From Theocolax elegans (taxonomy: Eukaryota; Arthropoda; Insecta; Hymenoptera; Cerocephalidae): DNA of 64,000 nt. This document shows, one piece after another, positions 872 to 56,067 of the stretch. The position numbers and the translations under genes were made by a program. Numbering within the stretch: the first letter of the stretch is position 1; each line of letters begins with the position of its first letter. The notes beneath the pieces are model-generated. The model was not told where the DNA came from. It saw nothing but the letters and a program-made list of their open reading frames with translations, and did no database searches. Where the stretch lies: positions 47,141,973 through 47,205,972 of the forward strand of contig CM047426.1 of NCBI GenBank assembly GCA_026168455.1, given 5' to 3'.

Positions 872-1216
872 TGAGTGTATTTTGTACTTTTAGAGTAATA
901 AAACTTTCTTCTTAAATAAATAAATTTTTGTATTAATTTTAAAGAACTATTTATATCATTTTAGTGGCATATAAATAAAAACCTGATTCATCCATTTCTC
1001 CCGTAATTCGTAATTTGCACCCTCTTTCAAAATTTGCGTTTTAATCCATAATTATATCCAATTTATTTTTCCCTTTACTTACAGAGCCCATATATTTATT
1101 TTGATTATTATAAACAAATTCATTCCTTAAATAACCTTCTGTTTCTAATAAATGCATACTTGTTTATTTAAAATATTGTTATATATAAATTTACATAATC
1201 TACTAACTTATATATC
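872..1216. other. AT-rich spacer, no gene seen
   Basis: The second tandem unit is followed by AT-rich sequence with an aataaa motif near 897. No ORF or RNA gene is recognisable. The stretch ends in TATC (1213-1216), the left target duplication of the LTR retroelement. Confidence 0.5.
1213..1216. repeat. target-site duplication, left copy (TATC)
   Basis: TATC directly precedes the TG of the 5' LTR and is repeated directly after the CA of the 3' LTR at 17533-17536. Four bases is the usual duplication length for Gypsy/errantivirus integrases. Confidence 0.8.
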
Positions 1217-1778
1217 TGACGCGTCCAGACGAAAATTATATTATTATTTTTCGTAAAAAAGCACTGCGTAGTTTAGAATAAAATTGTGGCGTAGAAGAAA
1301 AACGAAATAAGGTTGATACAGAATAATTCTAAGTAAATGCAGTAATATACAATATAATTTATAGAACTAAGGGACAGATTAATTTACGAGTGTTTTAAAC
1401 GAAAAAGAGGTTGATAAGTAGAGTTGAAGAGATTATTCTTCGAAACGAAGGGTTGCGCAAGAGTTTTTTTGTACTGCACTATAAAATCAATGCTCGGAGA
1501 AGAACAGGCGATGGGAAACATGGACTAGAAAATTGGAGCATTAGAAGGAACTAATAAATTAAGCCGTTCTTTGGATAATGTCGCAGTAATAAAAGGGGGA
1601 CAGCAAATTCTCCGAATTAACTACGAAGCGATACAGAAGATGCATTGGATTCGATAATTTTTAATCACGCGCATCTAACGGTCCAATTGGGTGCAAGCAC
1701 AGAAAAATCGAGAACTATATATGCAATTTCCATCTAAAGCAAAGCGTAAGACAAGGACAGATGCATAGATTTTTAGGG

Positions 1779-1786
1779 TATATAAA
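1779..1786 (+). promoter_or_regulatory. LTR TATA box (5' copy)
   Basis: TATATAAA followed by gaggacccagaacagacac. The same box is conserved at 15377-15384 in the other LTR, which marks the probable U3/R start. The transcription start itself is inferred. Confidence 0.55.
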
Positions 1787-2133
1787 GAGGACCCAGAACA
1801 GACACAGCCACTCCTAATTTTTCGTCTAAAGCTTTCGTAAGGCGAAGCTCCGCCAGTCAACTCTTTGATTTTTATCCGACGGCGTGGCTCTGCTACTTGG
1901 ACTTTAAAGAAATACGCATTCAAAATCAAGAGAGATCTTGTATTCGGGGATCGAGTCGCATCGTTGACATCTACGAGTTATAGTCAAGGAACTCCGACTT
2001 CGACATCTGGCAATCATCGAACTCCGAAAGCACACGTATCCAACGTCGACGCCCGCAGGATTAGCAGGACATTATCAAGCCATTTGACACCGCAATCCAC
2101 GTTCGAGGCGGACCTTCGTTCCTCACCGCATAT

Positions 2134-2171
<38 letters not shown>

Positions 2172-3828
2172 GGGTGGTTCTCTGTGACATCGAAGATGAA
2201 AAAAATAAATATTGCTATAACTGTGGGAATATGTTTTAGAGGTATCCAGTAGTTCTCCTGAATTTTTTCAGATTTTTTCTGGGACATTATTTTAAGTTAC
2301 AGAGAGTCAAAGTTGACATTTTAGCACTTTTTTGCATTATATGCCCATTTTCATGAATTTTGAGCTCCCAGGGGATGCATTTTTCACTAAAAACATAAGT
2401 ATGACTTTTTTTGTAAAATTTTCCGAACTTTTCATTAAAAATACTTTTAAAGACATAAATGTATGCTGTCACACTCTTGTAAGCCATTTAAACATTAAAT
2501 AGTGAAAATCAGCAATTCTGCTCCGGACCCTGGTAACCTAATACTGTCTAAAAGATGTCTTTTTATAGTCAGAAACTGCCTAAAAATTTCCAGAGTGGGT
2601 CTAAATCATGAAGATCACTTATGGTCAAAATATCCGGGAAAAGTGCCCGAAATATTAATAGAAATGTATATTTGTTGCCTTATAACGATGAATCTAGTAG
2701 CATGATCATTGCAAAAAAATTTGTGCACTTACCTTGGAGTGGTAGAAAAGTATCTTCACTTGTTTCAGTATCCATCTAATCCCCTGTAAGCTGCTAAAAA
2801 TACAAATATTATTATACAAATGTAAAAAATTAATTTTTAAACATTTATAATGCTGAATTTTTAGTTTTACATCCCTTACAAGAATTATAATACTAATCTG
2901 AAGGATTACTATAAATATATAAACATCATTATTACAATAACTGAATATACGTATTTAATACAAAAGATATATAAATAAATCGGATATATAATTATAATGA
3001 ATAATATGATAACGTGACAGTGACAAGTTTGTGAAATCTAAACAATGTATTGCTGAATATTAATAATAATAATAATGTTGATACTTTTATAGTAATCCTT
3101 CAGATTAGTATTATAATTCTTGTAAGGAATGTAAAACTAAAAATCCAGCATTATAAATGTTTAAAAAATAATTTTTTATAATTTTATAATAATATTTGTA
3201 TTTTTAGCAGCTTACAGGGGATTAGATGGATACTGAAACAAGTGAAGATACTTTTCTACCACTCCAAGGTAAGTGCACAAATTTTTTTGCAATGATCATG
3301 CTACTAGATTCATCGTTATAAGGCAACAAATATACATTTCTATTAATATTTCGGGCACTTTTCCCGGATATTTTGACCATAAGTCATCTTAATGATTTAG
3401 ACCCACTCTGGAAATTTTTAGGCAGTTTCTGACTATAAAAAGACATCTTTTAGACAGTATTAGGTTACCAGAGTCCGGAGCAGAATTGCTGATTTTCACT
3501 ATTTAATGTTTAAATGGCTTACAAGAGTGTGACAGCATACATTTATGTCTTTAAAAGTATTTTTAATGAAAAGTTCGGAAAATTTTACAAAAAAAGTCAT
3601 ACTTATGATTTTAGTGAAAAATGCATCCCCTGGGAGCTAAAAATTCATGAAAATGGGCATATAATGCAAAAAGTGCTAAAATGTCAACTTTGACTCTCTG
3701 TAACTTAAAATAATGGCCCAGAAAAAATCTGAAAAAATTCAGGAGAACTACTGGATACCTCTAAAACATATTCCCATAGTTATAGCAATATTTATTTTTT
3801 TCATCTTCGATGTCACAGAGAACCACCC
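2172..3828. mobile_element. foldback (long inverted repeat) element in the 5' LTR
   Basis: The segment starts gggtggttctctgtgacatc and ends with its reverse complement. Arms of about 744 bases (2172-2915 and 3086-3828) are nearly perfect inverted copies around a loop of about 170 bases. It sits inside a TA microsatellite, so the duplicated target is probably TA, but the exact ends cannot be fixed. The 3' LTR has the empty site. No transposase is encoded, and ORFs in the arms are mirror images of each other. It is best called a non-autonomous TIR/MITE-like element. Confidence 0.9.
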
Positions 3829-4646
3829 ATATATATATATATATATACACACTTATATATTTATATATATCTATATATTTGGGTACTTAAGATATATTCT
3901 TTTCGGCTATCTATACGCTTGCATTATTCGTAAAGGCAAACCTGATATTTTATGTTATTTCAATTACTGAACCAACTGTTTTCTCTTACAACAATTATTA
4001 TTTGATACTGCAATTTATTTATAATAATTATTCTTTGCATTGCATTTTATTTGCAATATTTACGGTTTAAATTGCAATTTATTAACAATAATTCATGTTT
4101 TCAACAACAGTTTTTAATTTAATCTGCATTTATTTATAATAATTCTTATTTTGATTATTAATTATTAATGTTTATAAAAAAATAACCTTGTGTATATTTC
4201 ATTCTATAATTTGTTGACGTGTTCGCAGTACAATTGTTTATTTAATCAAATTTAAAATTGTTATTTGACTTAAATAATTTTATGCAATTGTTAATAAAAT
4301 AGTGTAATTTTATGTGTTTTTGTCCATTAAAAAGCTGTAAGAATTTAGTTACACGTGTTCAATTAAAGGAAAGCAGCATATTATGATGTTAACAAATTTA
4401 AATAAATAATGCACGATTAATACGAAATAAAACATATATAATTTTATTTATCCCACATTATATCCTACATCTCTACTCTCAAAATAACTTCGCTCGCTAC
4501 TCCCGGAGACGTAAGGCTACTCCTACTCAAACAAGAGCGAAAGGAACGCGAATGGTTTATTAACCAGTTGCGTTCTTGTAACATTTTTTATGGTAATTGG
4601 TACAAGTCTGGACGTGACAGATTGTATTAATAATTATAATAAAATT

Positions 4647-4664
4647 TGGTGCATCGGCCGGGAA
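4647..4664 (+). promoter_or_regulatory. primer-binding site, tRNA-Gly
   Basis: TGGTGCATCGGCCGGGAA is the exact complement of an 18-nt tRNA 3' end including CCA. The acceptor and T-stem bases match the conserved animal tRNA-Gly (GCC) 3' end. It lies 27 bases after the LTR end, further than in many Gypsy elements. Confidence 0.8.
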
Positions 4665-4707
4665 ACTCACATTTTTGAGAGAAAAAAAAAGGGATTAAAG
4701 GAATAAT

Positions 4708-6886
4708 GTGTTTAGAAATAAAATGTCAGGTTCGCCTAAAAATACTGATTTTTATGTAAATAAACAAAGAAACACGAGTTTAGAATTTTTTATGAATGAT
4801 ACGTTATTAAATTTATACAAAGAAAAAGTTCAGACTCTCGATACTCTCGATTTAACTAAGACTCCTAGGGAAACAGTGCAAAATTTGACAAAAGAAATAA
4901 ATTATTTAAAGGATAGACTAGAAAAAAGTACATCAAATATTTCATTATCTATAAAAATACCTCGCGATTTTGAATATAGAGACCCTTTTTTCCAACCGAT
5001 CTTTTATTTCCGAAGTTAGTGAAGACGAGCAAGAAGACACAATAATTACTCCCACGCGCGTAAAACATTTTAGTTTACAATCCGCTGTTTTGAAATACGA
5101 GGAACAAAAAGAACCTATCGCGAATAATCCTATGAATGTTAGTACGCCAGCCTCAATTGATCGTCCATATGAACCATTATTTTAACACCGGATAACGTTA
5201 TAAGTTCGGTAAGAAAACGGCTCGCGACAGAAGTGAAAAAAGAGTTGTTAGATTCTTATCTCGAGGAACCTACAATCATAGAAAGTTTACAAGAAAGTGT
5301 AAAAAAAGGGACAACTTTTCAAGGTATCATAAATAAGATTAAAGGCGCGTTAAATATTTGTTCCGCACCGATCGAAAAAGAGACTGAGGAAGCAAAGGCA
5401 TTAGTGACAGACACGGCGAAAGTACTCGACGAAAAACTAATTCAAGGCGCGACAGATTTTACAATTCCCTTCGATAATCGATTAATTAAAAGATCACCCG
5501 AACAAGCAAACTCTTCTAAGATTAAAGACGAATTATTTAATAAAATTAATTTAGACGAATTAATAACAAACATCGGAACAAAACCAAAAAAATTAGATAG
5601 GAGTGAAGTTAAAAAACAGAGAAATAATAAAACCATGACGTCTCAAATTCGAGGTTTATCGCTAAAGAACGCTTTAGATTTAATACCGCGGTTTAACGGT
5701 CATAATATAAATTTATCGCAATTTTTGGACGGATGTAATGAAGCAAAAAAAATTTTACCGTCGGAGTATGAGAAAGAATTAACGAAACTTATTCGAATGC
5801 GTTTATATGGGGAAGCTTTAACTTGTGCGAGCGGAGAAAATTTTAATTCTATCAAAGAGATATCCGATTTTTTCGAAAACACCTTCGGATCAATAAAAAC
5901 ATTACGAGTGGACGGGAGACCTTGCTAAATTAAAACAGAAAAACAATGAGACAGTCGTTGCTTATTTCAATCGGTTACAAGAAATAAAAAATGAAATAGT
6001 CAAAGCGGCCGACAGAGAGGGTCGAGTTGCGTTAGCAGATCATTTCATGCTTGAACTAAGGTGAGATTGTTTAAAATTCTTTTTAAAAGGGCTTCGTTGG
6101 GAAATTCGTGCGCGTTTAGGGACTTTAATTTCTATAAAACAAGCTCGTGAACAAGCGCTCGAGGTGGAGCGCGAGTTCGCTTGTAGCGTCTTGGACGAGG
6201 AGACGCCGAGCCGAGAAGAGGCTCGTTCTCGTTCAACTCGAGAAACGCGTAAAGTAAACTATATTTCGAATAACTCTCCGATCGTATGTCAATATTGTTC
6301 TAAAACTGGTTATGGAGCCATAAATTGTTTCAAATTAGCACGAAGTTTTGCGGAAAGATTTGCCGATAATAACAACCGACGCAATCCCATAAACAGTTCT
6401 TATAGCCCACAAAGTCACTCGGATAACGGTCGTAATTATAATAGGCCAAATTTATAATTTGGTGGTTGGAGCGAGTATCAAAATCAGACGAAATTTTTAC
6501 CAAATAGAGATAGAGATAAAAATGATTCCTTTGTTCGTTATAATAATAATAAATATTCATCGCAGCAATTTAACAAAGAAGATCGGGGAAATAATTCCGA
6601 GACTCGCGGTGTGCGCGAGCCGGTTAATCCAACTTCCCAAGAATCGCGATATATTAATAACGAATCGAATAACAATATAAGATCACCAGTTACTTGTTTC
6701 CATTGCGGAAAACCCGGCCACATAAAGCGCGAGTGTTATAAGTTACAAAGAGAAATAAGAGAAGGAAATCAAAATCAGGGAAACACCGATACTCTCTCTC
6801 TGAGGAGGGTCGAGAAAGAGGCTACGAATCAAATTCCCTCTACATCGAGTGCGGAAACCCGCTCAAACGTCCCCTCCGCACCATGA
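4708..6886 (+). pseudogene. gag: gag pseudogene
   Basis: This is the structural capsid/nucleocapsid polyprotein of the retroelement. Open segments in different frames cover 4708-5019, 4970-5185, 5233-5928, about 5930-6457 and about 6455-6886, so at least four frameshifts plus an in-frame TGA at 6062 break it. The middle part (RFNGHNINLSQFLDGC, then a helical region) resembles Gypsy capsid. The C-terminal part carries two zinc knuckles. The first, CQYC...NC near 6285-6330, has Tyr where the CCHC His should be. The second, CFHCGKPGHIKREC near 6694-6738, is a perfect CX2CX4HX4C. The stop at 6884-6886 overlaps the protease ATG as ATGA, which implies expression of pol by -1 frameshift or reinitiation. 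It cannot make a full protein. Confidence 0.85.
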
Positions 6887-7179
6887 AAATAAATTTAAGC
6901 CAACAAAGTTCAGCCCCGGTCGTAATCTTCGATACCGGTCAGTTAAGACGTCCGTTAAAATTCTTGCTAGATACAGGAGCATCGGTAAGTCTAATTAAAG
7001 AGTCAGAGGTAGACTCTCGCGTGAAAATTGACGAAAATGATATTATATGGTTAAAAGGCATAACCGACCACTCATTAACTACTCGTGGTAAAATTAGAAT
7101 AGATTTCGAAGGATCTCCCGTGGAACTCAATTTAGTACATGATTCGTTCCCTAGACAACGGATTAATCCTCCCTTTTGA
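6883..7179 (+). pseudogene. pro: retroelement aspartic protease, 3' broken
   Basis: The open frame starts at the ATG overlapping the gag stop. It holds the retropepsin active-site block FLLDTGASVSLIKE (residues about 27-40), followed by a flap-like region and the strand VELNLVHDSFP. The active-site Asp-Thr-Gly is intact. After residue about 90 the frame shifts; reading continues in the frame opening at 7139. The usual GILG-type block that ends such proteases is not seen, so a small deletion may accompany the frameshift. It would process Gag-Pol in an intact element. Confidence 0.8.
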
Positions 7180-7852
7180 AAATGCAAATAATATGCAAAC
7201 GGATGAATCGATTTATATAATGGAGGATATCGAAAATAATGACCGAAAATCAATACGATATATGCCAAAACCAAGGGAAAACAATGATATTACGAACATA
7301 AAAAATTCAAGATTTCATAATTATACCGATAGTGACTGAGAAACGTCAAATGATTTTCAATTACACGAAAATGATGAAACGTTTATAATATTTGACACAA
7401 ACGAATCGTATGAAATCTACGAGCAAGAACAAAGAAATGAAAGAAATCAAAATGGCACCGACAAAAACCTATACCATCACTGTGAAAAAGAACAAGAGTT
7501 ATATGACGATTATAAAAATGACTAAATACAAGTACATCAGATCGACGAGGAGTCAGATCTAAAGAATAATACATGTAAAGCAAGTGAAAATTGTTATGGA
7601 TTAATGAAGGCAGAACGATTACAAATATATAATGAAAAAGCGCAGCCACGGGTATGTGATGTGACTGAGCCACGTATTAAAGAAAAATTTGATGAAATTA
7701 CTGAAAATTATGGTATTATTGAAGCACCATTGTTCAATAGGATGGCTGAGAGTCTATCCTGTACTAATTATGAAAACGAAGTTGACCTGAAGTATGATAT
7801 TGAAAATGAAATAAAAAATGAAGAAAATTTATTGGATAAGACAAAAAAAATG
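7139..7852 (+). pseudogene. pol linker between protease and lost RT
   Basis: One frame continues through 7139-7918 with in-frame stops at 7337 (TGA) and 7523 (TAA). The translation is acidic, rich in Asn/Glu, with no recognised fold. Gypsy elements often have such a spacer between protease and reverse transcriptase. Homology stops around 7850, where unrelated sequence begins; no RT motif (such as YxDD) occurs anywhere before the integrase remnant. I infer it is the pre-RT linker. Confidence 0.55.
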
Positions 7853-8106
7853 CGCTACCTGAACACTGGTGCACAGGACTCCCTTCGGGGAGGTCCTCGT
7901 TTCTCTTCGATATGTTAAGTGGAGGGTTGTGCGATGTTACGTGCGATATTGATGGAGAGTTGTGATTCACCCAATATGTTAAATTAATATCTCTGCGCCA
8001 TTTTTTATTGCCTTGAAAAGAGACGGCTTAAAAAACGTCCGAAACGTCGGCAGTTAATAAAAATTGAGTTCGTGGAGATCAATTTGAGTCTTATTTTTTA
8101 TTAATA
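7853..8106. other. foreign segment at the pol deletion junction
   Basis: About 250 bases separate the pre-RT linker from the middle of integrase and resemble neither. The segment contains cgtccgaaacgtcggc at about 8036-8051, which shares the GAAACGTCG word with the Penelope-type motifs at 50709 and 58192. RT, RNase H and the N-terminal integrase domain, about 2 kb or more, should lie here and are absent. Either a deletion was filled by, or an insertion was followed by, this piece. Confidence 0.45.
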
Positions 8107-8852
8107 TAATAACCATTCAATGCAACCTTTCAAAATACTGTATGGCGATACCCATACCAGACGTGACCGCGGCAACGATCGCCGAAGCGTTAGTTCGTCG
8201 ACACTTTTCAATTTTTAGCGCCCCATTGTTAATTATCTCCGAATAAGGTACCTCATTTCCTGATGTAGTCTGATGAGAGAAGTAGCGAAAATTTTTAAGA
8301 TTAAACAAGTTAAAACCACGGCTTATCACCCTCAGTCCAACTCCGTTGAGCGTTTTCATAGCAGCTTAGCAGATTATTTAAAAACAATGATAGAAAGAAA
8401 TGACGCATGGGATGAGTTATGCGAATTAGCCGCGTTTTCGTATAATAAGGTCGGTACATGAGGGTTATCTCTACACACCTTTTGAAATTGTTTTTGCACG
8501 AAAAGCGCGACTACCATCAAACGAACCTTTAGACCCACGAGAACGAGTTCCAACGTATGATGATTACGTTATAAATTTACGACAACGTTTAAACGAAATA
8601 CAGGGAATCGCGCGAGAAAAATTAATAGCCTCTAAACATAGGTCGAAATTCTATTACGACAGGAAAGCCAATCATCAAGAATTTCAGGCAGGGGATAATG
8701 TCTGGTTATTAAAAGGCGATCAATATACTGGACCACATCGGATTTTAGAAATAGTTAATAACAAGGGAAATGTAAAAATAGAGCTAGCTCATAATAAAAC
8801 GAAAATAGCACATGTTAATAGGTTAAGATATTCATATATGGAGCCTTTGTAG
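8107..8852 (+). pseudogene. int: integrase 3' half, broken
   Basis: The segment begins inside the catalytic core. The HHCC zinc domain and first catalytic Asp are missing. The second catalytic region reads SE-stop-GTSF, so the usual Asp is Glu and is followed by a stop. The third block (AYHPQSN-VERFHSSL, near 8318-8365) keeps the catalytic Glu. Frameshifts occur near 8265 and 8456. The C-terminal part (YTPFEIVFARK, then FYYDRKA, GDNVWLLKGDQYTGP and HVNRLR) is typical of Gypsy integrases and ends at the TAG at 8850-8852. No active integrase can be made. Confidence 0.88.
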
Positions 8853-8904
8853 TGCCTAAACATATGTATATAATAGCCCCAATGCGCTTATGAATATGTA
8901 TACG

Positions 8905-8949
<45 letters not shown>

Positions 8950-9375
8950 TACAGTTCTAAGAGGATGTCAATAAAATAATATTTATTATCTTTTAATCAC
9001 AATTGGAATACATTCTACTGAAAACAAAATTATTTCAATTTATCTGACTTTATACTAAATTAACGACGAAAATAAAACTATAAGGCAATAATATTTTTAA
9101 TTATACAGAAAAATCATTACAAAAAAAGCATATAGTCATTTAAATTAAATAAATACGCGATTATTAAATTGGACACGAATAAGGCAAATTCTCTTTACTC
9201 TTCTCGCCTAAGATAACAATGATGTTAATGTACAAAGGAAAGTAAGGAAAAGGTTTAAATTTTTCAATGTCAGTTGAGCTTAGTCAAATTTAAATTTATC
9301 TGCTATAAAAAAATGATTTACAATAATATAGAATCATTTGAGTCGAATACATCACTAAACCTAAAAGCTATATAC
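8853..9375. other. non-coding spacer after pol
   Basis: AT-rich sequence with a (TA)n run at about 8908-8943. No ORF or RNA gene is recognisable. It lies inside the retroelement between pol and the accessory region and could hold the intron of a spliced accessory mRNA. Confidence 0.4.
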
Positions 9376-9532
9376 TATCCTTCCTAAGGAGTGCTTAATT
9401 GCACCCTTTCCTCCTCGATGCGGTAAAAGCTCCAGCAACACCGTCACTTATCCTTCCTAAGGAGTGCATAATTGCACCCTTTCCTCCTCGTTGCGGTAAA
9501 AGCTCCAGCAACACCGTCACTTATCCTTCCTA
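9376..9532 (+). repeat. 73-bp tandem repeat inside the retroelement
   Basis: The word tatccttcctaaggagtgc starts at 9376 and 9449, and a partial third unit starts at 9522, giving a period of exactly 73. The units are GC-richer than their surroundings (gcaccctttcctcctcg). Short tandem repeats between pol and env in some errantiviruses bind host factors; such a role here is only a guess. Confidence 0.9.
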
Positions 9533-9610
9533 CATACCACTCAAAATGTAAACCTATATAAATAATTACAACTGAACTCACCTTGACTCTAGTAATTCTG
9601 TTAATTAGTC

Positions 9611-9624
9611 ATACTTTCTTACAG
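9611..9624 (+). promoter_or_regulatory. candidate splice acceptor before the accessory ORFs
   Basis: atactttcttacag is a pyrimidine tract ending in AG, 70 bases upstream of the small ORF at 9694. Envelope genes of errantiviruses are expressed from spliced RNA, so an acceptor is expected in this region. A donor-like cag/gtataa follows at about 9631-9639. Confidence 0.35.
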
Positions 9625-9693
9625 GACTCGCAGGTATAAATAAATAAGGAGAGTTTGGCATACTAGAAACAAAAAAATCTAAGACTGGACTCA

Positions 9694-9990
9694 ATGGACA
9701 TGGGAGATTCTGTACAACATAATAACGATTGCAAAGAAACGAGAAGAGGCGGAAAGAAAAAGATTTGATCAAAACTAATTATTGAAAAGAGAACTTTATT
9801 AAAAAAATTAAGTAAAGTAAACTCGCAGATAGCTTCCATACACATGTCGGTTAAAGACATGGACTCGAATTTAAAGTATAAAGAAATTTCCGATATTGAT
9901 TTTAACGAACAAATGTAGCAGAAATTTGATAAATTAATTAATTTCGCGGAAAAAGTTCAAAATTTATCTATTAATAAAAACTACAATTAA
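9694..9990 (+). pseudogene. small coiled-coil accessory ORF, two stops
   Basis: A 99-codon frame runs from ATG 9694 to TAA 9988-9990, interrupted only by TGA at 9766 and TAG at 9916. The translation is charged and helical, with a basic stretch (KETRRGGKKK) near residue 20 and a leucine/isoleucine-spaced part (KRTLLKKLSKVNSQIASI) that could form a coiled coil. I recognise no family. Its place between pol and the envelope genes suggests an accessory gene of the element. An uninterrupted reading has not been observed, so this is an inference from one decayed copy. Confidence 0.4.
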
Positions 9991-10383
9991 AACCTTTTTG
10001 AGATAATAAGGGAGATTTTAAATAAATAATATTCGCAAGTTTGTATAGTATTGATAGAAAATACAGCAAACAAAAAGATGTATAAATAACATAAATCTAC
10101 AATTGATACTTTAAGCCTTGTACAATTGTTTAATCACTAGTTGGAACAAATTAAAATAAAATAAAAAAAATAAGAGAGAAAAATGAATGTGTGCCCATTG
10201 GTTCGAGTATGGTATAAAGTTTAATTTGTACATGATATATGTATGAGTATTGTGCGTATACACATAGCTCAAAAAACTATAGTAAGAGAAAATAAACGAT
10301 GAAAACTGTTCAATTCATAGACTCAATCCTTTAATTAATATCAACCACGGATAAGCAAAGAAATTTCTGTAGGCTGCCTAAAG

Positions 10384-11094
10384 ATGAAAGTTGCACTTAC
10401 CAAACGACAGCAACGCAAGAAAAGACAGGAGGAGAGAAAGAAGAAAGAAGGGGAAAAGGACCCATTAAAAAATATTATTAAATACGGAGTGAAATGTTTC
10501 CAAGATGAGGCCAAGGGAACAACTCCCGCTTATTCCCGAAGGCTAGCAAATGAAACAGAGTTTCTAACATTTGTTATATACAATCACAGTTTAAACTTTA
10601 GGTTGGCTATTAAAGAAGCCTACCTTAGCGCTGTAGGTTTCAACGATTGCATGCCTCAAAGGTTAAGACGATTTATAAACTTTAGAGCGCAACTGGAAAT
10701 GCAACATCCGGATTACCCAGAAAAAAGTGACGATGAACTCGTAAATGAAGTAGAAAATAGGTATAGAGAAAGCTCCGCATTCATGGAACTAGGGAAAACG
10801 AATGCAAAGTACTTAGAAATAAAAGAATATGGTGGTCAAGGATTTGGTGACCAAACGTACCACGGAAGGTGTAAATATTGTAAACAGAAAATTCCGGTGT
10901 GGCGAGAGTGCGCAAAATGCGCCAATTACTATCTACAACTTCAAGGGGAAGGAATATATATAGAATCCATGGAGTGTACGGACGATGAACACCTACGACA
11001 TCTAGAAGTAACATCCCATTCTCCGACTGGTTGTTTTGCGGGAGGTTCCTTAACCGTATTACGGGATGAAAGATGGTCAACGGGAGATTGGTAA
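10384..11094 (+). CDS. intact accessory ORF with zinc-ribbon-like motif
   Basis: The 236-codon frame is fully open, which is striking because every neighbouring gene is broken. Residues 6-25 are very basic (KRQQRKKRQEERKKK), suited to RNA binding or nuclear import. The middle is a mixed helical domain. C163-X2-C166-X9-C176-X2-C179 would fit a small zinc ribbon. The C-terminus has further Cys/His residues, no signal peptide and no membrane segment. I do not recognise the family; it is not gag, protease, RT, integrase or envelope. By position it is an accessory gene of the LTR element, about 1.5 kb after integrase and 0.5 kb before the first envelope. A captured host or viral gene is the alternative. 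Confidence 0.6.
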   Translation: MKVALTKRQQRKKRQEERKKKEGEKDPLKNIIKYGVKCFQDEAKGTTPAYSRRLANETEFLTFVIYNHSLNFRLAIKEAYLSAVGFNDCMPQRLRRFINFRAQLEMQHPDYPEKSDDELVNEVENRYRESSAFMELGKTNAKYLEIKEYGGQGFGDQTYHGRCKYCKQKIPVWRECAKCANYYLQLQGEGIYIESMECTDDEHLRHLEVTSHSPTGCFAGGSLTVLRDERWSTGDW

Positions 11095-11580
11095 TGAAAA
11101 AAGGAAAGAGACAAAGGAAGATCGGAAAAACTATAACGATAAGATAAATACAAGAATGCTAAATAAAATTTTTTTTTCTCCTGCCTATGTACCAAATCAT
11201 AAAGAAATAAAATAAATACAAAATCAATATAAGAAGGGGATTCTGAGTTCGTAAGCCTATACTTTAAGAGAAGGACGACACTTTCTGACTAACCTTTGTA
11301 CTAACCACACTGCCCCAGGCAATTGTACAACAATAAAAGAAATACATACATAGTTGACTCCTATCTTTTAGTTTAATTTATAGTGCACCCCATGTAACTA
11401 CGAATCATTGTTTTTGGTTTAAATTACAAAATAAACACACCCAGAATCACATATAAAAAAATAAGTACGCAAACAAAAAATTAAAAGCAGGGCGTTCCAT
11501 GAACCAGAAGGATCCATATAGAAAAAAAAGAAACAAAAAAAAAGAGACAGGGAAAGGGGCGGAAAGATTTATCGATATCT
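11095..11580. other. AT-rich spacer before env
   Basis: No convincing ORF. The end of the stretch is purine-rich (gaaaaaaaagaaacaaaaaaaaagag) and leads into the pyrimidine tract of the candidate env splice acceptor. Confidence 0.4.
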
Positions 11581-11595
11581 CTTTTACTTTTTCAG
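11581..11595 (+). promoter_or_regulatory. candidate env splice acceptor
   Basis: cttttactttttcag, a good pyrimidine tract with AG, ends nine bases before the envelope ATG at 11605. This is the arrangement expected for a spliced subgenomic env mRNA. Confidence 0.5.
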
Positions 11596-11604
11596 AACAA
11601 AAAA

Positions 11605-13295
11605 ATGAGAAACTTCAACATAATGTTTTTATCCCTCTTAACATTTTGTACGGGAAACGAAGTAGAGCCAAAAGGAATCGAACCTCAACAAATACCTCGA
11701 TCGGGTATATTCTTCGAACGACAGGAAGATGTACAACTAACTCCAGTCGCGTGGAAAATTATTATTAGCATGACTTGCATACACGAAGATATGAATCTAA
11801 CGGATATTTGGACTACGTTTAGCGAATTGAAAAACGATTGCCCGTTAGGTCACGAAAAATTTGAAGAACTGTTTGGAAATTTTAAGAATTTACAAGAAAA
11901 ATATGCTAGAACTTTACACATCTTAAACTCTACAGAAAGTACTGGCAATGACGTAAAATCAGATTTGCATGAAAACAAGTTAGTACGTTAAGACTTAGAG
12001 AGTAAATTAATTAACAATTACATAGATAGGATACTACTAGGGGTTAGGACTAAAATAGTATTTATAGAAAGTAATACGATGGGATTTAATATATACATAG
12101 ACAAAGTAAGATTGTATGATGAATTCAACATTATGCAAAAAATGAAGCAAATGAAAGAGGAAATTTATCTTGAACGATACTCGCTAATAATGAACAATAT
12201 AAAAACTACGTTAGGAAGAATGTTGGACAACCAGATAAGCTACAGTGTAGGTACACTTGTTAATTTAGAAGGAATAAAAGAGCATCAAATGTATACTACT
12301 TTATTATCATCTAATAAACTCAAACAAGCTGTTAATTATATCGAAAAATATGAGAAAACCAATGAATTCCCGTTGAAAAGGGGAGAGGGAAATTTAAAAA
12401 GACTAGCTAACATAATAAGCCTACATACTGGATACATCAATCATAAACTATTTATTCAAATAGAGGTTCCCTTGGTTGACAAATCTACTTGCTCATTGTA
12501 TAGGGTATCTCCTCTTCCAATTCCTCAAAACGTCTATACCAATGAATCAAACATCGCCTATGTTAAACCCGAAAATAACTATATTCTGCAACAAGAGGCA
12601 AATTATTGCGGTTTCTCAAGCACCGACCTTAAGAATTGTAAAAAGTTTCAAGGAAAATTAATTTGCAAAAAAGAAAGACTGCATTTAAAGTAATAGATAG
12701 TTGCGAAACGGAATTGATGTCTCAACCGGCTAAATGTAATTACCGTAACTGCAATATCAAATATAAAACCAATGCCAAACCAAAGATAATAAAACTTGAA
12801 AAATTAAATAAAATATTATACTCAGCGCCCATGACTACGAGAGTGTCGATTGGCTGTGACGGTTTAACAGGGACGATCATACCGTTACGTGGAGTCGGAA
12901 TAATACACACAAAAATGAATTGTACGTTTAAAATAAATGGGGAAGTTATAAAAATACATGAGGTACCAACGGAATATTCAAATCACTTGTTATTTCCTCA
13001 GACGTCGTTAAATATTAGCAAACTATCAAATATCTTTAACAATACAAATACTAAAGATTTATTCCATAAATTAGTTAAGCAAAAACACTCGGGGAATTTT
13101 TGGGATATGGAAAATTACTGTAGGGATAAATTGATCAATACGGAAAAAACCGTTGTATTCACTACATTGTTTCTCATCTGTATAATCACAGGAGTAGTTA
13201 TATTTTTATTCATCGCGGGGATCTTCATACTTTTGTGTTACTTTAAAGAAATATTAGACACCATTCCGGAAGAAATAGAAATCCGTTTCGAATAA
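11605..13295 (+). pseudogene. env: envelope 1: gypsy/baculovirus F-type glycoprotein, broken
   Basis: This is the membrane fusion glycoprotein of the retroelement. A hydrophobic leader (MRNFNIMFLSLLTFCTG) starts at 11605. The N-terminal block GIFFERQEDVQLTPVAWKII and the later block LFIQIEVPL...LYRVSPLPIP are characteristic of gypsy Env and baculovirus F relatives. The stalk ends in a transmembrane segment at about 13155-13244, followed by a short tail. One in-frame stop (TAA 11989) and one frameshift in an A-run near 12665 break it; the second part reads in the frame opening at 12663. Length, about 560 codons, is normal for the family. The ATG choice rests on the leader and the acceptor just upstream. 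Confidence 0.82.
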
Positions 13296-13326
13296 ACAAA
13301 TAGGAAATAACTTCATAACTTCATAC

Positions 13327-14771
13327 ATGGACAATGAAAAGCATAGAAAATTATTTTATTTACAAATGGCAAAGAGATCATTCCTCCTGCTTTCACTCGT
13401 AAGTGTAATTAATTACTCGTCGGGACTTTACGGATATGGCTGCGGGGAACAACTTTCAAATCTAACAACAATATCGTTAGTGGATGTTAAAGAATGTGAT
13501 ATACATGAACCATATATTAATGTAACAAAAATTTACGCGTAATTACTACAATTGAACGATTACAGTACCACGCATGTATACAAATGCATAATAAAAATCA
13601 CACGTACAGTTACACATTGCGGTATGCACGGACATGCATCTCGCGTCCTAAACGGAGAAATTAGTTATTATAAAGAAATAAGTAGGGAGGAATGTTATGG
13701 AATCCATGGTTCGGGTTATATTTCTATAAGCGACACTCAAATTATAAATCTACCCAGAAACAGTACCACTAATAAACGAATCGTGTTCGCGGGGGGGAAC
13801 GATAATAGCGGAAATTGTATTGGAGGTTTATTTTCGGATTCATACGGTACCTATAAAGACGCCTATGTCGCAGGTCATGTTGAAATAACAATATACGATT
13901 ACTATGCGGCTGTATATCTGGAATATAGTAAAGTAAGATTAGGCTCCGGGGTTACATGCACACTCGCGGATTTAGAATGAACAGATATCGATGCCTCACA
14001 AGTTTTCTGGGAAGCGCTTCCGGAGGATTCATGCGGAGTTAACAAATATTCTGTGTTGTATGAAGGAAATTTGGATAAAATATATGAAGCGCAAGAAAAC
14101 CGTATAATATACTCGCTTGAAACTAATGATATTACACTCGCACTATGGAAAAAAGGAGAGCAGACTGTATGCGGTTTTAGGTTCGCGCGCACCGAACATC
14201 CCAAGCTTTTCATAATTGAGGACGCCAAGGCTAACAGTTTTATAAGCAAAAAAACAATTGAGGGAAACAATCTTGATATATTTGCATACATAAAATCAAA
14301 ATTCTTGTACGTTGAAAAATATGTACGCCGACAGTTAAATAGAATGTACTACGATATATTAAAACAAAGGTAACAGCGGGAGAAATTATTCAACTATTAA
14401 AATGCTTAAAAGTAGAAGTAGTGGGGAGAGAAACGACAGGGTGTTACGAACAGCTACCCGTGTTTCAGGACAATGAACCATACTTTCTCACACCTAGAAC
14501 GTGTATATTAGTAAGAACTGGGAAACCCCTAATGTGTGATAATCGTTTACCGGTTATGTTCAAAATGCATCAAATTTGGTTTAAAATGCTACCAAATCCA
14601 GTCGAAGTAAAAGATCCCGAGATATTGACGCCTCAAACAAAACTAACATGGAGATATGTTTCACCCGAGACACTTGCTACTAGTGGAATATACGGACAAA
14701 AAGATACCAGTAAACTTTGCGATATGATATTATTCCCATTAGAAAAATCGTCGTTTTTAAAAAGGGGGGCA
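13327..14771 (+). pseudogene. envelope 2: chuvirus-type glycoprotein, broken and 3'-truncated
   Basis: A second, unrelated glycoprotein gene begins 31 bases after envelope 1. A signal-like leader starts at Met 13366 (MAKRSFLLLSLVSVINY). The cysteine-rich ectodomain has blocks CGMHGHASRVLNG, EISREEC and SGVTC, and later YSVLYEGN. These are the kind of blocks I know from glycoproteins of chuviruses (class III fusion family), some of which have been captured by insect LTR elements. In-frame stops lie at 13540 (TAA) and 13978 (TGA), and a frameshift near 14370 moves reading to the frame through 14421-14834. The frame runs into the polypurine tract and LTR, with no proper transmembrane anchor, so the C-terminus appears lost. 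The chuvirus link rests on remembered motifs. Confidence 0.65.
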
Positions 14772-14774
14772 AGT
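14759..14774 (+). promoter_or_regulatory. polypurine tract
   Basis: aaaaaggggggcaag directly precedes the TGTCGCG start of the 3' LTR. This is the position and composition of a plus-strand primer. Confidence 0.85.
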
Positions 14775-15376
14775 TGTCGCGTCCCGACGAAAATTATATT
14801 ATTATTTTTCGTAAAAAAGTACTGCGTAGTTTAGAATAAAATTATGGCGTAGAAGAAAAACGAAATAAGGTTGATAAAGAATAACTCTAAGTAAATGCAG
14901 TAATATAAAATATAATTTATAGAGTTAAGGGTCAGATTAATTTACGAGTTTTTCAAACGAAAAAGAGACTGGTAAGTAGAGTTGAAGATATTATTCGGAG
15001 CCAATACGCATAAAAGCGGAATCGCCGATAGTGAGATCTAAACAAAGGGTTGCGTAAGAGTTTTTTTTGTACTGCACTATAAAATCAATGCTCGGAGAAG
15101 AACCGGCGATGGGAATCATGGACTAGAAAATTCGAGCATTAGGAGGAAGTAATAAATTAAGCCGTTCTTTGGATAATGTCGCAGTAATAAAAGGGGGACA
15201 GCAAATTCTCCGAATTAACTACGAAGCGATACAGAAAATGCATGGGATTCGATCATTTTTAATCACGCACATCTAACGGCCCAATCGGGTGCAAGCACAG
15301 AAAAATCGAGAACTACTTACGCAATTTCCATATAAGGCAAAGCGTAAGACAAGAACAGATGCATAGATTTTTAGGG

Positions 15377-15384
15377 TATATAAA
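15377..15384 (+). promoter_or_regulatory. LTR TATA box (3' copy)
   Basis: TATATAAA in the same context as 1779-1786. Conservation between the LTRs supports it as the LTR promoter. Confidence 0.5.
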
Positions 15385-16267
15385 GAGGACCCAGAACAGA
15401 CACAGCCACTTCTAATTTTCCATCTAAACTGTCGTAAGGCGAAGTTCTGCTAGTCAACTCTTTCATTTTTATCCGAGCGTGTGGCACTGCTACTCGGACT
15501 TTAAATAGAAATACGCATTCAAAATCAAGAGAGATCTTGTATTCGGGGATCGAGACGCATCGTTAACATCTACGAGCCATAGTCAAGGAACTAAGACTTC
15601 GACATCTGGCAATCATCGGACTCCAGCAGCATACACATCTAACGTCGACGCCCGCAGGTCTAGCAGGACATTATCCAGCAATTTGACACCGCTATCCACA
15701 TTCGAGGCGGACCTTCGTTCCTCACCGCATATACACACACATATATATATACACTTATATATGTATATCTATATATTTGGGTACTTAAGGTATATTCTTT
15801 TCGGCTATCTATACGCTTGTATTATTCGTAAAGGCAAACCTGATATTTTATGTTATTTCAATTACTGAACCAACCGTTTTCTCTTACAACAATTATTATT
15901 TGATACTGCAATTTATTTATAATAATTATTCTTTGCATTGCATTTTATTTGCAATATTTACGGTTTCAATTGCAATTTATTAATAATAATTCATGTTTTC
16001 AACCACAACAATTTTTAATTTAATCTGCATTTATTTATAATAATTCTTATTTTGATTATTAATTATTAATGTTAATAAAAAAATAACCTTGTGTATATTT
16101 CATTCTATAATTTGTTAACGTGTTCGCAGTACAATTGTTTATTTAATCAAATTTAAAATTGTTATTTGATTTAAATAATTTTCTGCAATTGTTAATAAAA
16201 TAGTGTAATTTTATGTGTTTTTGCCCATTAAAAAGCTGTAAGAATTTAGTTACACGTGTTCATTTAA

Positions 16268-17275
16268 GGAGGGTCAATTTGAGAAGTCCCTTTAGGGCAC
16301 TAATATTTTTACAAATTTCTATTAGTAAATGTTATATATAGTTTTCGGTGTTAATAATTATTATCCTAAATATGCAAATCATTGCGTAAATCAATGGTGA
16401 AAGAAAAATATTTACTTTCACCGAGCGCCCATTATGATCACCTAAATGTATATAAGACTGAGTCACAAGATTTGGCAACGTTGCGTACGGAGTATATCTA
16501 TATATTATATCGGCGCTTCGACTTCCAAAACAGCGTCGGCTCGTATAAATATGGAATGTAATGGTTATTCTTGATAAAAATGAAATACAATGAGCATGCA
16601 ACGAGAGGCAAAAAAAAGGAAAGATTATAGAGTCAATTTTTAACTCCATTAAGTAAATAAATTAAATATTGTTATAAATATTTTAAATACAATTTTATTA
16701 TTCTAGAATAAAAGAGTTTAAAATGAGAAGTTTAAATATATGTTACTTGTAAAAATGTAGTACAATAAAAGTTTAATATTTATCGAATAAAATAATAAAT
16801 GTTTTCAAATTTATTTAACCTACGTATATTGCAATTTCAAATTGCCGCGTAAATTAAAATGCGGCGTTGCGATATCTACCACGCATGCGCAGTAACTGTC
16901 AGCTGATTCAGTGGTTATTACTTTGATCAAATATTTTTATACTTCTGTATCTATTTTCTTCTAATTTACATCGTTTACCCCCCTTTTTCTCATGACTATT
17001 TTAATCTTCATTAAAAAACTATCGTCCACTAGTTTTTTATTATTATCTCTTTGATATTAACGAAGTTATAAGAAACTTAATGAGATAATTATGACTCCTG
17101 CCATTTAAGCCTGTGTAAAAGCATGAATTTTCTGTGAATGATTTCTCGAGAATTAAATCGTTTACCCTACTATTTTTTTTACCAATCGAATAATCGATGT
17201 TCAAACTATCTTCTGTTAAAGTTTTATCAAAAACTGTTGGTTTTCAAAAATATCATGGGAGACGATTGACCCTCC
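16268..17275. mobile_element. TTAA-flanked non-autonomous DNA transposon
   Basis: The 1,008-bp insertion has TTAA on both sides (16264-16267 and 17276-17279) and an 11-bp perfect terminal inverted repeat, ggagggtcaat...attgaccctcc. The 5' LTR shows the empty site at about 4351-4358. A TTAA target with short inverted repeats is the hallmark of piggyBac-type transposition. No transposase is encoded and the interior is unassigned. The family label is inferred from target and termini only. Confidence 0.82.
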
Positions 17276-17536
17276 TTAAAGGAAAACAGCATATTATGGT
17301 GTTAACATATTTAAATAAATAATGCATGATTAATACGAAATAAAACATATATTATTTTATTTATCCCACATTATATCCTACATCTCTACTCTCAAAATAA
17401 CTTCGCTCGCTACTCCCGGAGACGTAAGGCTAGTCCTAGACAAACAAGAGCGAAAGGAACGCGAATGGTTTATTAACCATTTGCCTTCTTGTAACATTTT
17501 TTATGGTAATTGGTACAAGTCTGGACGGGACATATC

Positions 17537-17660
17537 CATACAATTTTGAAATTTTAATTTAAAAAATATATAAATTAAATTAATAATTTTTGAAAATCTT
17601 TTCAAATGTAACTCGTATTTTATATTACCACTGTTAAAATTTGAATTTTCTTTTGCATCA
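17537..17660. other. short AT-rich spacer
   Basis: Unassigned sequence between the right target duplication of the LTR element and the first TC array. No gene seen. Confidence 0.4.
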
Positions 17661-18228
17661 TCTTTCTCTCTCTCTTTCTCTTTATCATTCATTCTCTCTC
17701 CCTTATTCTCTCTCTCTCTCTTTATCTCTCATACTCTCACTTTACCTATCTCATTCTCTCTCTCTATCTCTTTATCTCTAATTCTCTCTCTTTACCTATC
17801 TCATTCTCTCTCTCTATCTCTTTATCTCTAATTCTCTCTCTTTATCTATCTCATTCTCTCTCTCTCTCTCTATCTCTTTATCTCTCATTCTCTCTCTTTA
17901 TCTTACTCGCTCCCACTTTCGCACTCTATCACTCTATCTCTCATTCTCGCTCTCGCTCTCTATCTTCCATTCACTCTTTCTTAATCTCTCTCTCTCTTTC
18001 TCTCTATCTTTCATGCACACTCTCTTATTCTCTCTCTTTCTCTCTATCATTCATTCTCTCTCTCTTATTCTCTCTCTTTCTCTCTATCTTTCACTCTCTC
18101 TTATTCTCTCTCTCTCTTTCTCTCTATCTTTCTTTCTCTCTCTCTTATTCTCACTCTCTCTATCTATCTTTCATTCTCTCTCTCTCTCTATCTCTCTCCC
18201 TCTTTCTCTCCCTCTCTCTAGCTCTCTT
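17661..18228 (+). repeat. TC-rich microsatellite array A
   Basis: Long imperfect (TC)n with interspersed tatctctttatctctcattc-like units. It ends exactly where LINE 1 begins. Long Leu/Ser-rich open frames across it are artefacts of the repeat. Confidence 0.92.
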
Positions 18229-19358
18229 GGTAAGCATCGACATCGCCTCTAAGTAGCTCTTCAAACTTTTCATTTTTCTAATAGTTCTGTGTACTCCTTG
18301 GAGGCAAATTTTTCAGGAAGGAGTCCTCGGAGTGGCCTTTGTATTTGATGCAATAATGCACGTGTTAATGTGCATTATATTGGCCTAGAGTGACTTCTAC
18401 TGAGATGCGCTAGTAGGCAGCAGGCTTAATCAAGTTACTCTCAGACTATATTTTGTACGAGTCCATTCGTCATTCGAGGGAGGAGCAGTTGTGCTAGTGT
18501 TGTGATATGCATTCTGTTTTTTAGTTTTGTGTCGTTTTATATGCGCTTGAAAGGTGTATGTACATGCGAATTATTAATTGAAGCCGCACGTGGCGTACGT
18601 TACCATCAGTCGGTAATACAGATTTTTCTTTACGTGACATGTTACCTGATGGAAACTTCTTTCGTGATATGTTACCTTATGGAAATCTCTTTCTTCCTTG
18701 TATGTATATTTATGATTTACCGTACAACACGCAAATACTTTTAATAGAATAAACTCTTATCTCAAAATATTTTACTATATATTGTAAAGAGATTTCTTTA
18801 TAATATTTTGATTGGTTTTGCTATTAATTGTATATAATTTATTTAAATTCCGTGTGAAACATGTGCGATTCTGTATTAAATTGTATTAGAATTGTATTAT
18901 ATGCGCCGAGTGAGGAATGTTTGTATGTGTGTTATTTATATGTTGGCGTACAGTATAAACGGCTTAGCAAATTGATGTTTTTATACATTAAGTCGAAGTT
19001 AATATAATAAGTCGAAACTATTGAGAATTTGCTTTTAAAATTTATGTAAAATTTCATTGAGTATTTTTATTTGAGCCTTTATATTTTGAATACTGTTAAT
19101 ACCGAGTGATAATTAGGTTAATCTTATTGATTTTGCGACTTTGTGATTTTTATTGATTATACGTTGAGTATTTTTAATGCGATGCTGAGTGATGAGTGTG
19201 CAATTTATGCAGTTTTGAGATAATTATTGTTTGGTTTATATTTGTATTTAGACGGTGTTGGACAAAGTTGTACAAAATTGTAGAAGCGGTGTGTTGCGTG
19301 TGTGTGTGTGTGTTTTTTTTTTTTATATATTTTTAATTGTGTATGTTGTACAGTATAA

Positions 19359-55227: not shown

Positions 55228-56067
55228 TCAGTATAAATTAGATATTTTTTTGCTTGAATCGGAGTCATTATACTCACTTGAATATAGTTTGAATATATTA
55301 TTTTCTAAATATTTGTGAACGTTGTTCCAGTCGGTTCGTACCGATTTGATATTAAATGATAGTTTTCGGTAATTAGATTTTTCTACATTAATTTCTACGT
55401 TTACAAGATAATGGTCAGCACCCCAAGAGTCTTTTTCTACATTTATATTTATTTTATCCGCAAGATGGGTGTTTGAAAAAATTAAGTCTAGATTAGAATG
55501 TTTTTGCGTAGAAGTATCAAAATGTATCAACGAGTTTGGATTATGTAGAATTATATTTTTATTAATATAACTGTTAAGCAGATTTTCGCCATTTTTATCG
55601 TTTTTCGTACAATTCCAACTAACGTTATGGGAATCAAAATCACCCAAAAGTATTGAATTTTTATTATTATTTATGTTATCAAAGATAACATTCCATTGTA
55701 ATTCTAATAACGTGACACCTGAAGTTCTGTAAAAAACAATAAATTGTAATGGTAATTTTAAATTTGTTACGCATATGCCTGCTATTTCCACGGATAGGTC
55801 CGGACTTTTAATATTTTTAATTTCGTGAAAGGCAAGGTCATTTCGAATAAGTAATAAAATTCCTCCCCCTCTTGAGTGTTGGCGGTCTTGGCGATATGTT
55901 TTAAATCCAGCTACATGAAAGTTGTCTTCAGAGTCTTGCAGCCACGATTCAACACAAGCAAATATGTCTATGCCAATAAGGTTTTTTACAAGCTCTTCTT
56001 TTTTATTGAGAACACTTCGCGCATTCCAGAACAGAATTTTTAGATTTTTTGCTTCGTACTTTTCCAT
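55228..56067 (-). pseudogene. LINE ORF2: endonuclease only
   Basis: 280 codons open from Met 56067. APE-type endonuclease motifs: ILFWNARSV (Asn), FACVESWL (Glu), TYRQDRQHSRGGGILLLI, ILLGDFDSHNVSW (Asp/Asn), HSNLDLIFS and SWGADHYLV (the final Asp-His pair). After the frame ends at 55228 a further 100 or so codons of pre-RT linker can be read to about 55000 in another frame with stops, and then homology stops. No RT motif exists before the poly(A). It could still nick DNA if expressed but cannot copy RNA. Confidence 0.8.

What the first reader, a model, noticed from the sequence alone, without database searches (positions are those of the whole stretch)
11605..14771. One LTR retroelement carrying two unrelated envelope glycoprotein genes
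Seen: two consecutive leader-bearing, cysteine-rich reading frames between integrase and the 3' LTR, 31 bases apart. The first has gypsy/baculovirus F blocks and a transmembrane segment. The second shares none of these and has motifs I associate with chuvirus-type class III glycoproteins. Known: insect LTR elements have acquired envelopes from different virus families, normally one per element. Inference: this lineage added a second fusion protein, which might widen cell entry or represent an envelope swap caught midway. This is the best candidate in the window for an undescribed system.
Basis: partly seen in the sequence, partly recalled or inferred. Interest (0 to 1): 0.9.

Follow-up and report, generated by a model that had tools for sequence, protein, structure and literature searches.

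The report
Insect retrovirus-like element with two envelopes
A virus-like jumping gene in an insect genome, probably a wasp's, carries two unrelated cell-entry protein genes and, in its sister copies, a cell-death blocker, a set known from baculoviruses but that we did not find described for a retroelement.

Summary
The window holds one Ty3/gypsy-type LTR element (TG..CA LTRs, target duplication TATC) with two unrelated envelope genes between integrase and 3' LTR: a baculovirus-F-type gene (Pfam Baculo_F) and a class III type glycoprotein, GP (Pfam Monjiviricetes_fusion). This copy is dead: both genes carry stops or frame breaks, and a deletion removed the end of GP. It belongs to a multi-copy family. 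Of 65 family-1 GP loci examined in the same genome, 62 have F upstream (39 at a 251-nt gap) and 53 have an inhibitor-of-apoptosis gene (BIR+RING) downstream. Frames are open in a minority of copies; GP, IAP and orfX show purifying selection, F only a trend. Family order: gag-pol, orfX (unknown), F, GP, IAP, LTR. A second, distant gypsy-type family carries both envelope classes in the opposite order; one copy has identical LTRs (its F is frame-shifted). A third has GP, with no F detected nearby. Both F types lack furin and fusion-peptide motifs, so I infer that GP fuses membranes and F keeps an accessory role, as in group I baculoviruses. Entry, particles and expression were not tested.

The parts
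1213..1216 (.). target site duplication TATC, left
1217..2171 (+). 5' LTR, first part (starts TG)
   Evidence: blastn to 3' LTR
2172..3838 (.). foreign insert in the 5' LTR with long near-perfect inverted arms (foldback-like)
3839..4619 (+). 5' LTR, second part (ends CA)
4699..6883 (+). gag remnants incl. CCHC zinc knuckle (PF00098 2.9e-6)
   Evidence: matched in sister copies
6742..7176 (+). aspartic protease (PF00077 9.8e-5)
7136..7915 (+). pol remnants; reverse transcriptase missing between 7915 and 8264 relative to sister copies
8264..8849 (+). integrase C-terminal remnants; these pieces gave no integrase hit in Pfam themselves, the matching sister frame does
10384..11094 (+). orfX, 236 aa, unknown, intact here; found in 6 of 8 sister copies with upstream stretches (the other two are deleted or truncated upstream of F)
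11566..11595 (+). splice-acceptor-like tract (..TTTTTCAG) 9 nt before the F start codon; its sister-copy counterpart ranks 1 of 590 AGs by a simple score
11605..13295 (+). env 1: baculovirus-F-type glycoprotein gene (stop at 11989, frame break near 12642-12690)
13173..13229 (+). single transmembrane segment of F (counterpart 556-574 in a 595-aa sister frame)
13366..14749 (+). env 2: Monjiviricetes_fusion class III type glycoprotein gene; stops at 13540 and 13978; C-terminal part incl. transmembrane segment deleted in this copy
14750..14774 (+). polypurine tract (AAAAAGGGGGG) and flank; a nearly identical tract precedes the 3' LTR in 7 of 7 sister stretches read. The IAP gene that lies before it in sisters is deleted here
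14775..16270 (+). 3' LTR, first part (starts TG)
16271..17275 (.). foreign insert with short inverted termini in the 3' LTR
17276..17532 (+). 3' LTR, second part (ends CA)
17533..17536 (.). target site duplication TATC, right

Best explanation
SHOWN: the window element is a decayed member of a multi-copy Ty3/gypsy-type family that carries two unrelated envelope glycoprotein genes (F-type, then class III type GP), an inhibitor-of-apoptosis gene (BIR+RING) after GP, and a novel ORF before F, inside one LTR pair. INFERRED: it is an endogenous retrovirus with a complex genome. F, GP and IAP are expressed from spliced subgenomic RNAs (splice-acceptor-like AGs sit 9, 0 and 12 nt before their start codons). 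GP, full length with leader, transmembrane anchor and tail, is the membrane fusogen on particles. F, which keeps leader and anchor but lacks the furin site and fusion-peptide motif, is a retained accessory envelope protein (attachment, budding or interference). The RING-type IAP delays death of the producing or newly infected cell. The window copy itself makes none of these: it is a fossil.
For: Two Pfam families. F upstream of GP in 62 of 65 family-1 GP rows, 39 at a 251-nt gap; IAP downstream in 53 of 65, and the IAP start seen after GP in 17 of 19 copies with stretches held (window deleted, one stretch too short). IAP: PF00653 2.4e-24, RING 1.1e-9, zinc ligands intact; 20 of the 76 IAP rows typed in (106 listed) are full length without stop. 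One family-1 copy: LTRs 98.2% identical over 1730 nt, TSD CCTT on both sides, with gag, PR-RT-RNase H, orfX, F, GP and IAP between (its F is broken and no match to the window's integrase pieces was found in it). Purifying selection, one record per copy: pN/pS GP 0.27 (8 copies, p 3e-5), IAP 0.31 (6, p 0.006), orfX 0.17 (4, p 1e-4), F 0.36 (4, p 0.08). Acceptor-like sites: F rank 1 of 590, IAP 5 of 277, GP 9 of 178 AGs in their loci. Motif absence in F. Second family with both classes, LTRs 773 of 773 identical in one copy, TSD CTAC.
Against: No expression, particle or infection data. Of the family-1 GP rows only 12 of 65 have a frame of 640 aa or more (one of them with a stop inside the match), and only 4 of these also have an F frame of 570 aa or more. 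3 of 65 GP rows have no F within 3 kb and 12 of 65 no IAP within 6 kb; 22 of the 76 IAP rows typed in have none of the 65 GP rows upstream. The F selection test is not significant (p 0.08). The full-length F frame is not recognised by Pfam. In the family-2 copy with identical LTRs, F has a frame change, and 2 of 5 family-2 stretches show no F. orfX has no acceptor of note. The acceptor score is home-made. That F does not fuse rests on motif absence alone.
Confidence: 0.6

Rival explanations
1. Envelope swap caught midway: one envelope is already redundant and is being lost, the other has taken over; the pairing is short-lived.
For: F lacks furin and fusion-peptide motifs in both families; the F selection test is weak; group I baculoviruses use GP64 and keep an F homologue (passages of PMC6085415; passages of PMC12282062 on GP64).
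Against: Both genes persist through amplification: F beside GP in 62 of 65 rows, and 22 of the 70 F rows (80% identity or more) typed in have frames of 570 aa or more, 3 of them also listing a stop inside the match; pN/pS of F is 0.36, not 1; a second distant family also has both.
Confidence: 0.2
2. Both envelopes are full fusogens used in different tissues or hosts, widening cell entry.
For: Both have leader and transmembrane anchor in intact frames; pN/pS of both is below 1, significantly so for GP only.
Against: F lacks RxKR and the fusion-peptide consensus; no functional data.
Confidence: 0.15
3. The glycoprotein is an endogenous RNA-virus relic beside or inside the element by chance (nested insertion), not an element gene.
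For: Such relics are common in insects, and gypsy fragments flank them in Hymenoptera (abstract and passages of PMC10084718).
Against: Repeated spacing over tens of copies, position between F and PPT/LTR, LTR pair and TSD around the whole in the copies read, and constraint on GP speak against chance.
Confidence: 0.02
4. F and IAP are passengers amplified with one composite element rather than selected element genes.
For: Many copies are defective; the F test is not significant.
Against: pN/pS 0.17-0.36 on orfX, IAP, GP and F.
Confidence: 0.03

Closest known systems
Errantiviruses / insect ERVs (gypsy, ZAM, idefix, springer), env-F (PMC12992720, passages seen)
   Same: Ty3/gypsy-type pol; F-type env after pol; acceptor-like site before F
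   Different: Those are described there with one env-F carrying furin site and fusion peptide; here F lacks these motifs, and a class III type GP, an IAP and orfX are added
Anakin, Pao elements of mosquitoes with a chuvirus glycoprotein (PMC7642597, passages seen)
   Same: LTR element that captured a chuvirus-type glycoprotein as env
   Different: Pao-type, not gypsy-type; one env; no F or IAP mentioned in the passages seen
Jingchuvirales glycoprotein EVEs flanked by gypsy fragments in Hymenoptera (PMC10084718, abstract and passages seen)
   Same: Glycoprotein of this type, Hymenoptera, association with gypsy
   Different: That paper found no clear capture by gypsy; here it is inside gypsy-type elements with LTR pairs and TSD, and beside F
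Envelope-carrying gypsy elements with 'type III fusion glycoproteins' (PMC13172572, passages and discussion seen; the eLife 2025 paper it cites is not held)
   Same: States that gypsy elements have type III fusion glycoproteins
   Different: The text seen does not mention two envelopes in one element, nor IAP
Group I alphabaculoviruses (GP64 + F homologue; that they also carry IAP genes is recalled)
   Same: Same toolkit: a class III fusogen (that GP64 is class III is recalled) plus an F homologue, plus IAP
   Different: Large DNA viruses; GP64 is a different lineage, thought to come from thogotoviruses (PMC12282062)

Membership tests
Ty3/gypsy (Metaviridae-type LTR element) | PR-RT-RNase H-integrase order with gypsy-type domains | tested here: met
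   Sister frames: RVP, RVT_1, RT_RNaseH and RT_RNaseH, Integrase_H2C2, rve (rve of family 1 is 31.2 bits, just under its cut-off of 32.6, over it in families 2 and 3). In the window RT is deleted and IN is reduced to remnants. No phylogeny with reference elements was built
Ty3/gypsy (Metaviridae-type LTR element) | LTR pair TG..CA with short target duplication | tested here: met
   TATC (window), CCTT (a family-1 copy), CTAC (a family-2 copy)
Errantivirus (insect ERV, env-F) | Baculo_F-type envelope gene after pol | tested here: met
   5 of 5 sister pieces (4 distinct copies); full-length frame not recognised
Errantivirus (insect ERV, env-F) | F with furin site and fusion-peptide consensus | tested here: not met
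   no R.[KR]R and no GxxxxxGxxxKxxxGxxDxxD (with K/R and D/E allowed) in one F of each family; consensus taken from PMC6085415
Errantivirus (insect ERV, env-F) | RT phylogeny inside the errantivirus clade | not tested
   no reference RT set was fetched; hence not filed as an errantivirus
Monjiviricetes / chuvirus-type fusion glycoprotein | full-length match to PF24664 | tested here: met
   sister GP 5-648 of 653, E 7e-219
Monjiviricetes / chuvirus-type fusion glycoprotein | placement with Chuviridae rather than other mononega-like viruses | not tested
   the tree holds no virus reference; its named rows are hymenopteran genome proteins
Anakin (Pao with chuvirus GP) | BEL/Pao pol | tested here: not met
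   gypsy-type RT_RNaseH and Integrase_H2C2, no BEL-type family listed
IAP protein (BIR+RING) | BIR and C-terminal C3HC4 RING with zinc ligands | tested here: met
Functional retrovirus with two envelopes on one particle | both proteins on particles, infectivity | not testable with these tools
   no expression or particle data

The most novel reading that the evidence does not exclude
A lineage of insect endogenous retroviruses has a two-component envelope (a class III type GP as fusogen plus a fusion-motif-less F as partner) together with its own RING-type anti-apoptotic IAP, converging on the entry and survival kit of group I baculoviruses; dual envelopes arose more than once, since two distant gypsy-type families in this genome carry both genes in opposite order.
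Probability: 0.35. Interest if true: 0.92.

Novelty: new variant of a known kind. Interest (0 to 1): 0.85.

Why it matters
Envelope capture is how retrotransposons become retroviruses, and the papers seen here describe one envelope per element. A family that keeps two fusion-protein classes and an apoptosis inhibitor in tens of copies makes the 'replace or combine envelopes' question testable in a living insect. It also gives direct evidence for gypsy-type capture of this glycoprotein type, which a 2023 survey saw beside gypsy fragments in Hymenoptera but could not show as capture (PMC10084718), and offers a retroelement parallel to the GP64/F/IAP set of baculoviruses.

Tried and rejected
Rejected: nested insertion of one env (repeated spacing); both frames in one family; GP as an unrelated EVE. 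IAP as a fresh capture of a host gene: rejected, its BIR is only 38-48% identical to presumed host IAP genes over 65-68 residues (37-53% counting shorter alignments). Led nowhere: viral-contig scans (1 pattern match but no confirmed relative; no pattern match); orfX homologues (211 candidates, none significant); orfX fold (pLDDT 39; no fold search made); PDB sequence matches for GP (143-aa piece: two hits at E 0.35; full GP none) and F (none). A genome-wide count of family-2 F did not complete. In the GP tree the three families do not form one clade; family 2 is a long branch and the tree has no outgroup, so single versus repeated F gain is open. Against my first count: several genomic copies were counted twice under two locus names; one search repeats it with one record per copy. 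Rows dropped: searches use the first 65 GP rows (all 80% identity or more, down to E 3.6e-63; lower rows, some of them 80% or more but short, were left out), 77 of the roughly 150 F rows listed (the lower ones picked because they lie near a GP row, so 22 of 70 is no unbiased rate), and 76 of the 106 IAP rows. One of the three GP rows without F has F fragments about 3.9 kb upstream, outside my 3-kb limit. Counts from the genome search are lower bounds by the tool's own statement.
Full report
WHAT IS IN THE WINDOW. The element runs from 1217 to 17532. It has TG..CA LTR ends and a 4-nt target duplication TATC on both sides. Each LTR is split by a later insert: a foldback-like sequence at 2172-3838 and a second one with short inverted termini at 16271-17275. 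The remaining LTR pieces are 91.7, 97.0 and 95.7% identical, so this is an old copy. Between them lie gag remnants with a zinc knuckle, protease, short pol remnants with RT missing, integrase remnants, an intact 236-aa ORF (orfX), and the two genes of the finding.

THE TWO GENES. Each stop-to-stop piece was scanned apart. Of the three F pieces, the middle one (11992-12690) hits Baculo_F (8.8e-9), as do 5 of 5 equivalent pieces from 4 distinct sister copies. Intact sister F was not recognised when scanned at full length (595 aa) or as a 416-aa stretch, which I report as a weakness; F of family 1 and family 2 nevertheless align over 292 residues at 26% (E 8e-19 for the single comparison). All four GP pieces hit Monjiviricetes_fusion, and a sister GP covers nearly the whole profile (7e-219). 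Intact F has a leader and one transmembrane segment; intact GP has a leader, a transmembrane segment at frame residues 577-595 and a tail. The window GP lacks its C-terminal part: the sequence near 14749 jumps to the polypurine tract that in sister copies lies after the IAP gene.

THE FAMILY. The genome (658 Mb) holds many copies. Among the first 65 GP rows (all 80% identity or more, down to E 3.6e-63), 62 have an F match upstream on the same strand within 3 kb, 39 of them at a gap of exactly 251 nt; 3 have none. 53 of the 65 have an IAP match downstream within 6 kb, 21 of them at 1427-1431 nt (median 1429); 12 have none, the window copy among them. Seen from the other side, 54 of the 76 IAP rows typed in have one of these GP rows upstream and 22 do not. 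In 17 of 19 copies whose sequence was held, the IAP start lies after GP, at 1978-2041 nt from the GP start in the 14 where both starts are in the stretch; in the other two it is deleted (window) or beyond the stretch. orfX was found in 6 of 8 sister copies with upstream stretches (92-95% identity); the other two are deleted or truncated upstream of F. One family-1 copy has LTRs 98.2% identical over 1730 nt and TSD CCTT, with gag, PR-RT-RNase H, orfX, F, GP and IAP between them; its F is broken, and no match to the window's integrase pieces was found in it. Integrase was matched in 4 other copies (L032, L035, L036, L038).

THE IAP. The 449-aa frame after GP has a BIR domain (2.4e-24) and a C-terminal C3HC4 RING (1.1e-9) with intact zinc ligands. 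Its BIR is like those of NAIP, cIAP, DIAP1 and XIAP structures (82 matches, 60 shown), but only 38-48% identical to presumed host IAP genes over 65-68 residues. Its first ~284 residues have no recognised domain. Its source is unknown.

SELECTION AND EXPRESSION SIGNALS. Using unbroken frames, one record per genomic copy, pN/pS over all pairs was 0.27 for GP (8 copies), 0.31 for IAP (6), 0.36 for F (4) and 0.17 for orfX (4); one-sided tests on disjoint pairs gave 3e-5, 0.006, 0.08 and 1e-4. These values include decay after insertion, so true constraint during replication may be stronger. A simple score finds splice-acceptor-like sites 9 nt before F (rank 1 of 590 AGs in its locus), 0 nt before GP (9 of 178) and 12 nt before IAP (5 of 277); orfX has none of note. 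The CAG just before the GP start is kept in 25 of the 26 loci where the start motif was found (by my count 19 distinct copies) and is lost only in the window copy.

SECOND AND THIRD FAMILIES. Family 2 (GP about 43% identical to family 1) has gag-pol, GP, a short ORF of unknown function and then F. In one copy these lie inside LTRs identical over 773 of 773 nt with TSD CTAC, although F has a frame change there; F is open (574 aa from its start) in another copy. F was found downstream of GP in 3 of 5 family-2 stretches fetched; of the other two, one keeps part of the short ORF followed by sequence of the family-2 LTR, and neither shows F in the 5 kb held. Family 3 (one copy read) has gypsy-type pol then GP, with no F or IAP detected in the ~3 kb after GP; its 3' LTR was not located, so a gene further on is not excluded. 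Pol of all three is gypsy-type. In a tree of 93 GPs the three families lie apart: family 1 groups with GPs of the chalcid wasps Trichomalopsis and Trichogramma, family 3 near Venturia, family 2 on a long branch (long branches among these rows make this tentative). Hence the dual envelope either is ancient and reshuffled or arose more than once.

HOW IT MAY WORK. One F of each family was checked; both lack an R.[KR]R site and the fusion-peptide consensus reported for F of group II baculoviruses and gypsy-type ERVs (consensus from PMC6085415, passages). GP is complete in sister copies. The simplest model is that GP is the fusogen, F a retained accessory envelope protein, and IAP a cell-survival factor, the set that group I alphabaculoviruses also carry (GP64 plus F homologue: passages of PMC6085415 and PMC12282062; IAP recalled). 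These functional steps are inference.

WHAT IS KNOWN. One-envelope relatives are known: errantiviruses with env-F (PMC12992720, passages), Pao elements with a chuvirus glycoprotein (PMC7642597, passages), and gypsy fragments beside such glycoproteins in Hymenoptera, where capture by gypsy was not shown (PMC10084718, abstract and passages). PMC13172572 (discussion and passages) says gypsy elements have type III fusion glycoproteins. Searches for two-envelope LTR elements (3 papers, none on this), for chuvirus, errantivirus and class III terms and for IAP in LTR elements (15 of 81 papers listed) showed no such description in the titles and abstract starts listed; several of these listings were capped. 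The eLife 2025 survey of metazoan envelope-carrying elements is not held and could contain such cases, so novelty is limited to what was searched.

VERDICT. Filed as a new variant of a known kind (envelope-bearing gypsy-type elements).

Noticed in passing
window 10384-11094: orfX: intact 236-aa ORF between integrase and F, constrained in sister copies (pN/pS 0.17, 4 copies), cysteine-rich C-terminal half, no homologue found and no confident fold.
   Followed up: partly
L029 2515-3066: Family-2 elements carry a 184-aa ORF with 12 cysteines between GP and F, no Pfam match.
   Followed up: no
family-1 copies, between IAP and 3' LTR (L017/L039, L023/L043, L025/L045 and others): About 3.1 to 3.8 kb between the IAP gene and the 3' LTR; in the three copies scanned no long ORF stood out, apart from overlapping frames in one.
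   Followed up: partly
window 2172-3838: Foldback-like insert in the 5' LTR: inverted arms of 606 nt (98%) and 168 nt (99%).
   Followed up: partly
window 21189-22652, 27220-29070, 31283-33001, 36771-38423, 60575-61867: Several RVT_1 reverse transcriptase frames, and an endonuclease-RT type frame at 55228-56067, probably LINE-type elements.
   Followed up: no
window 17646-18245 and from 23392: Long CT-rich low-complexity arrays in two places.
   Followed up: no
P0115: A gene model of the bee Calliopsis joins this glycoprotein to a retroelement RNase H, another hint of gypsy-type GP carriers in bees.
   Followed up: no
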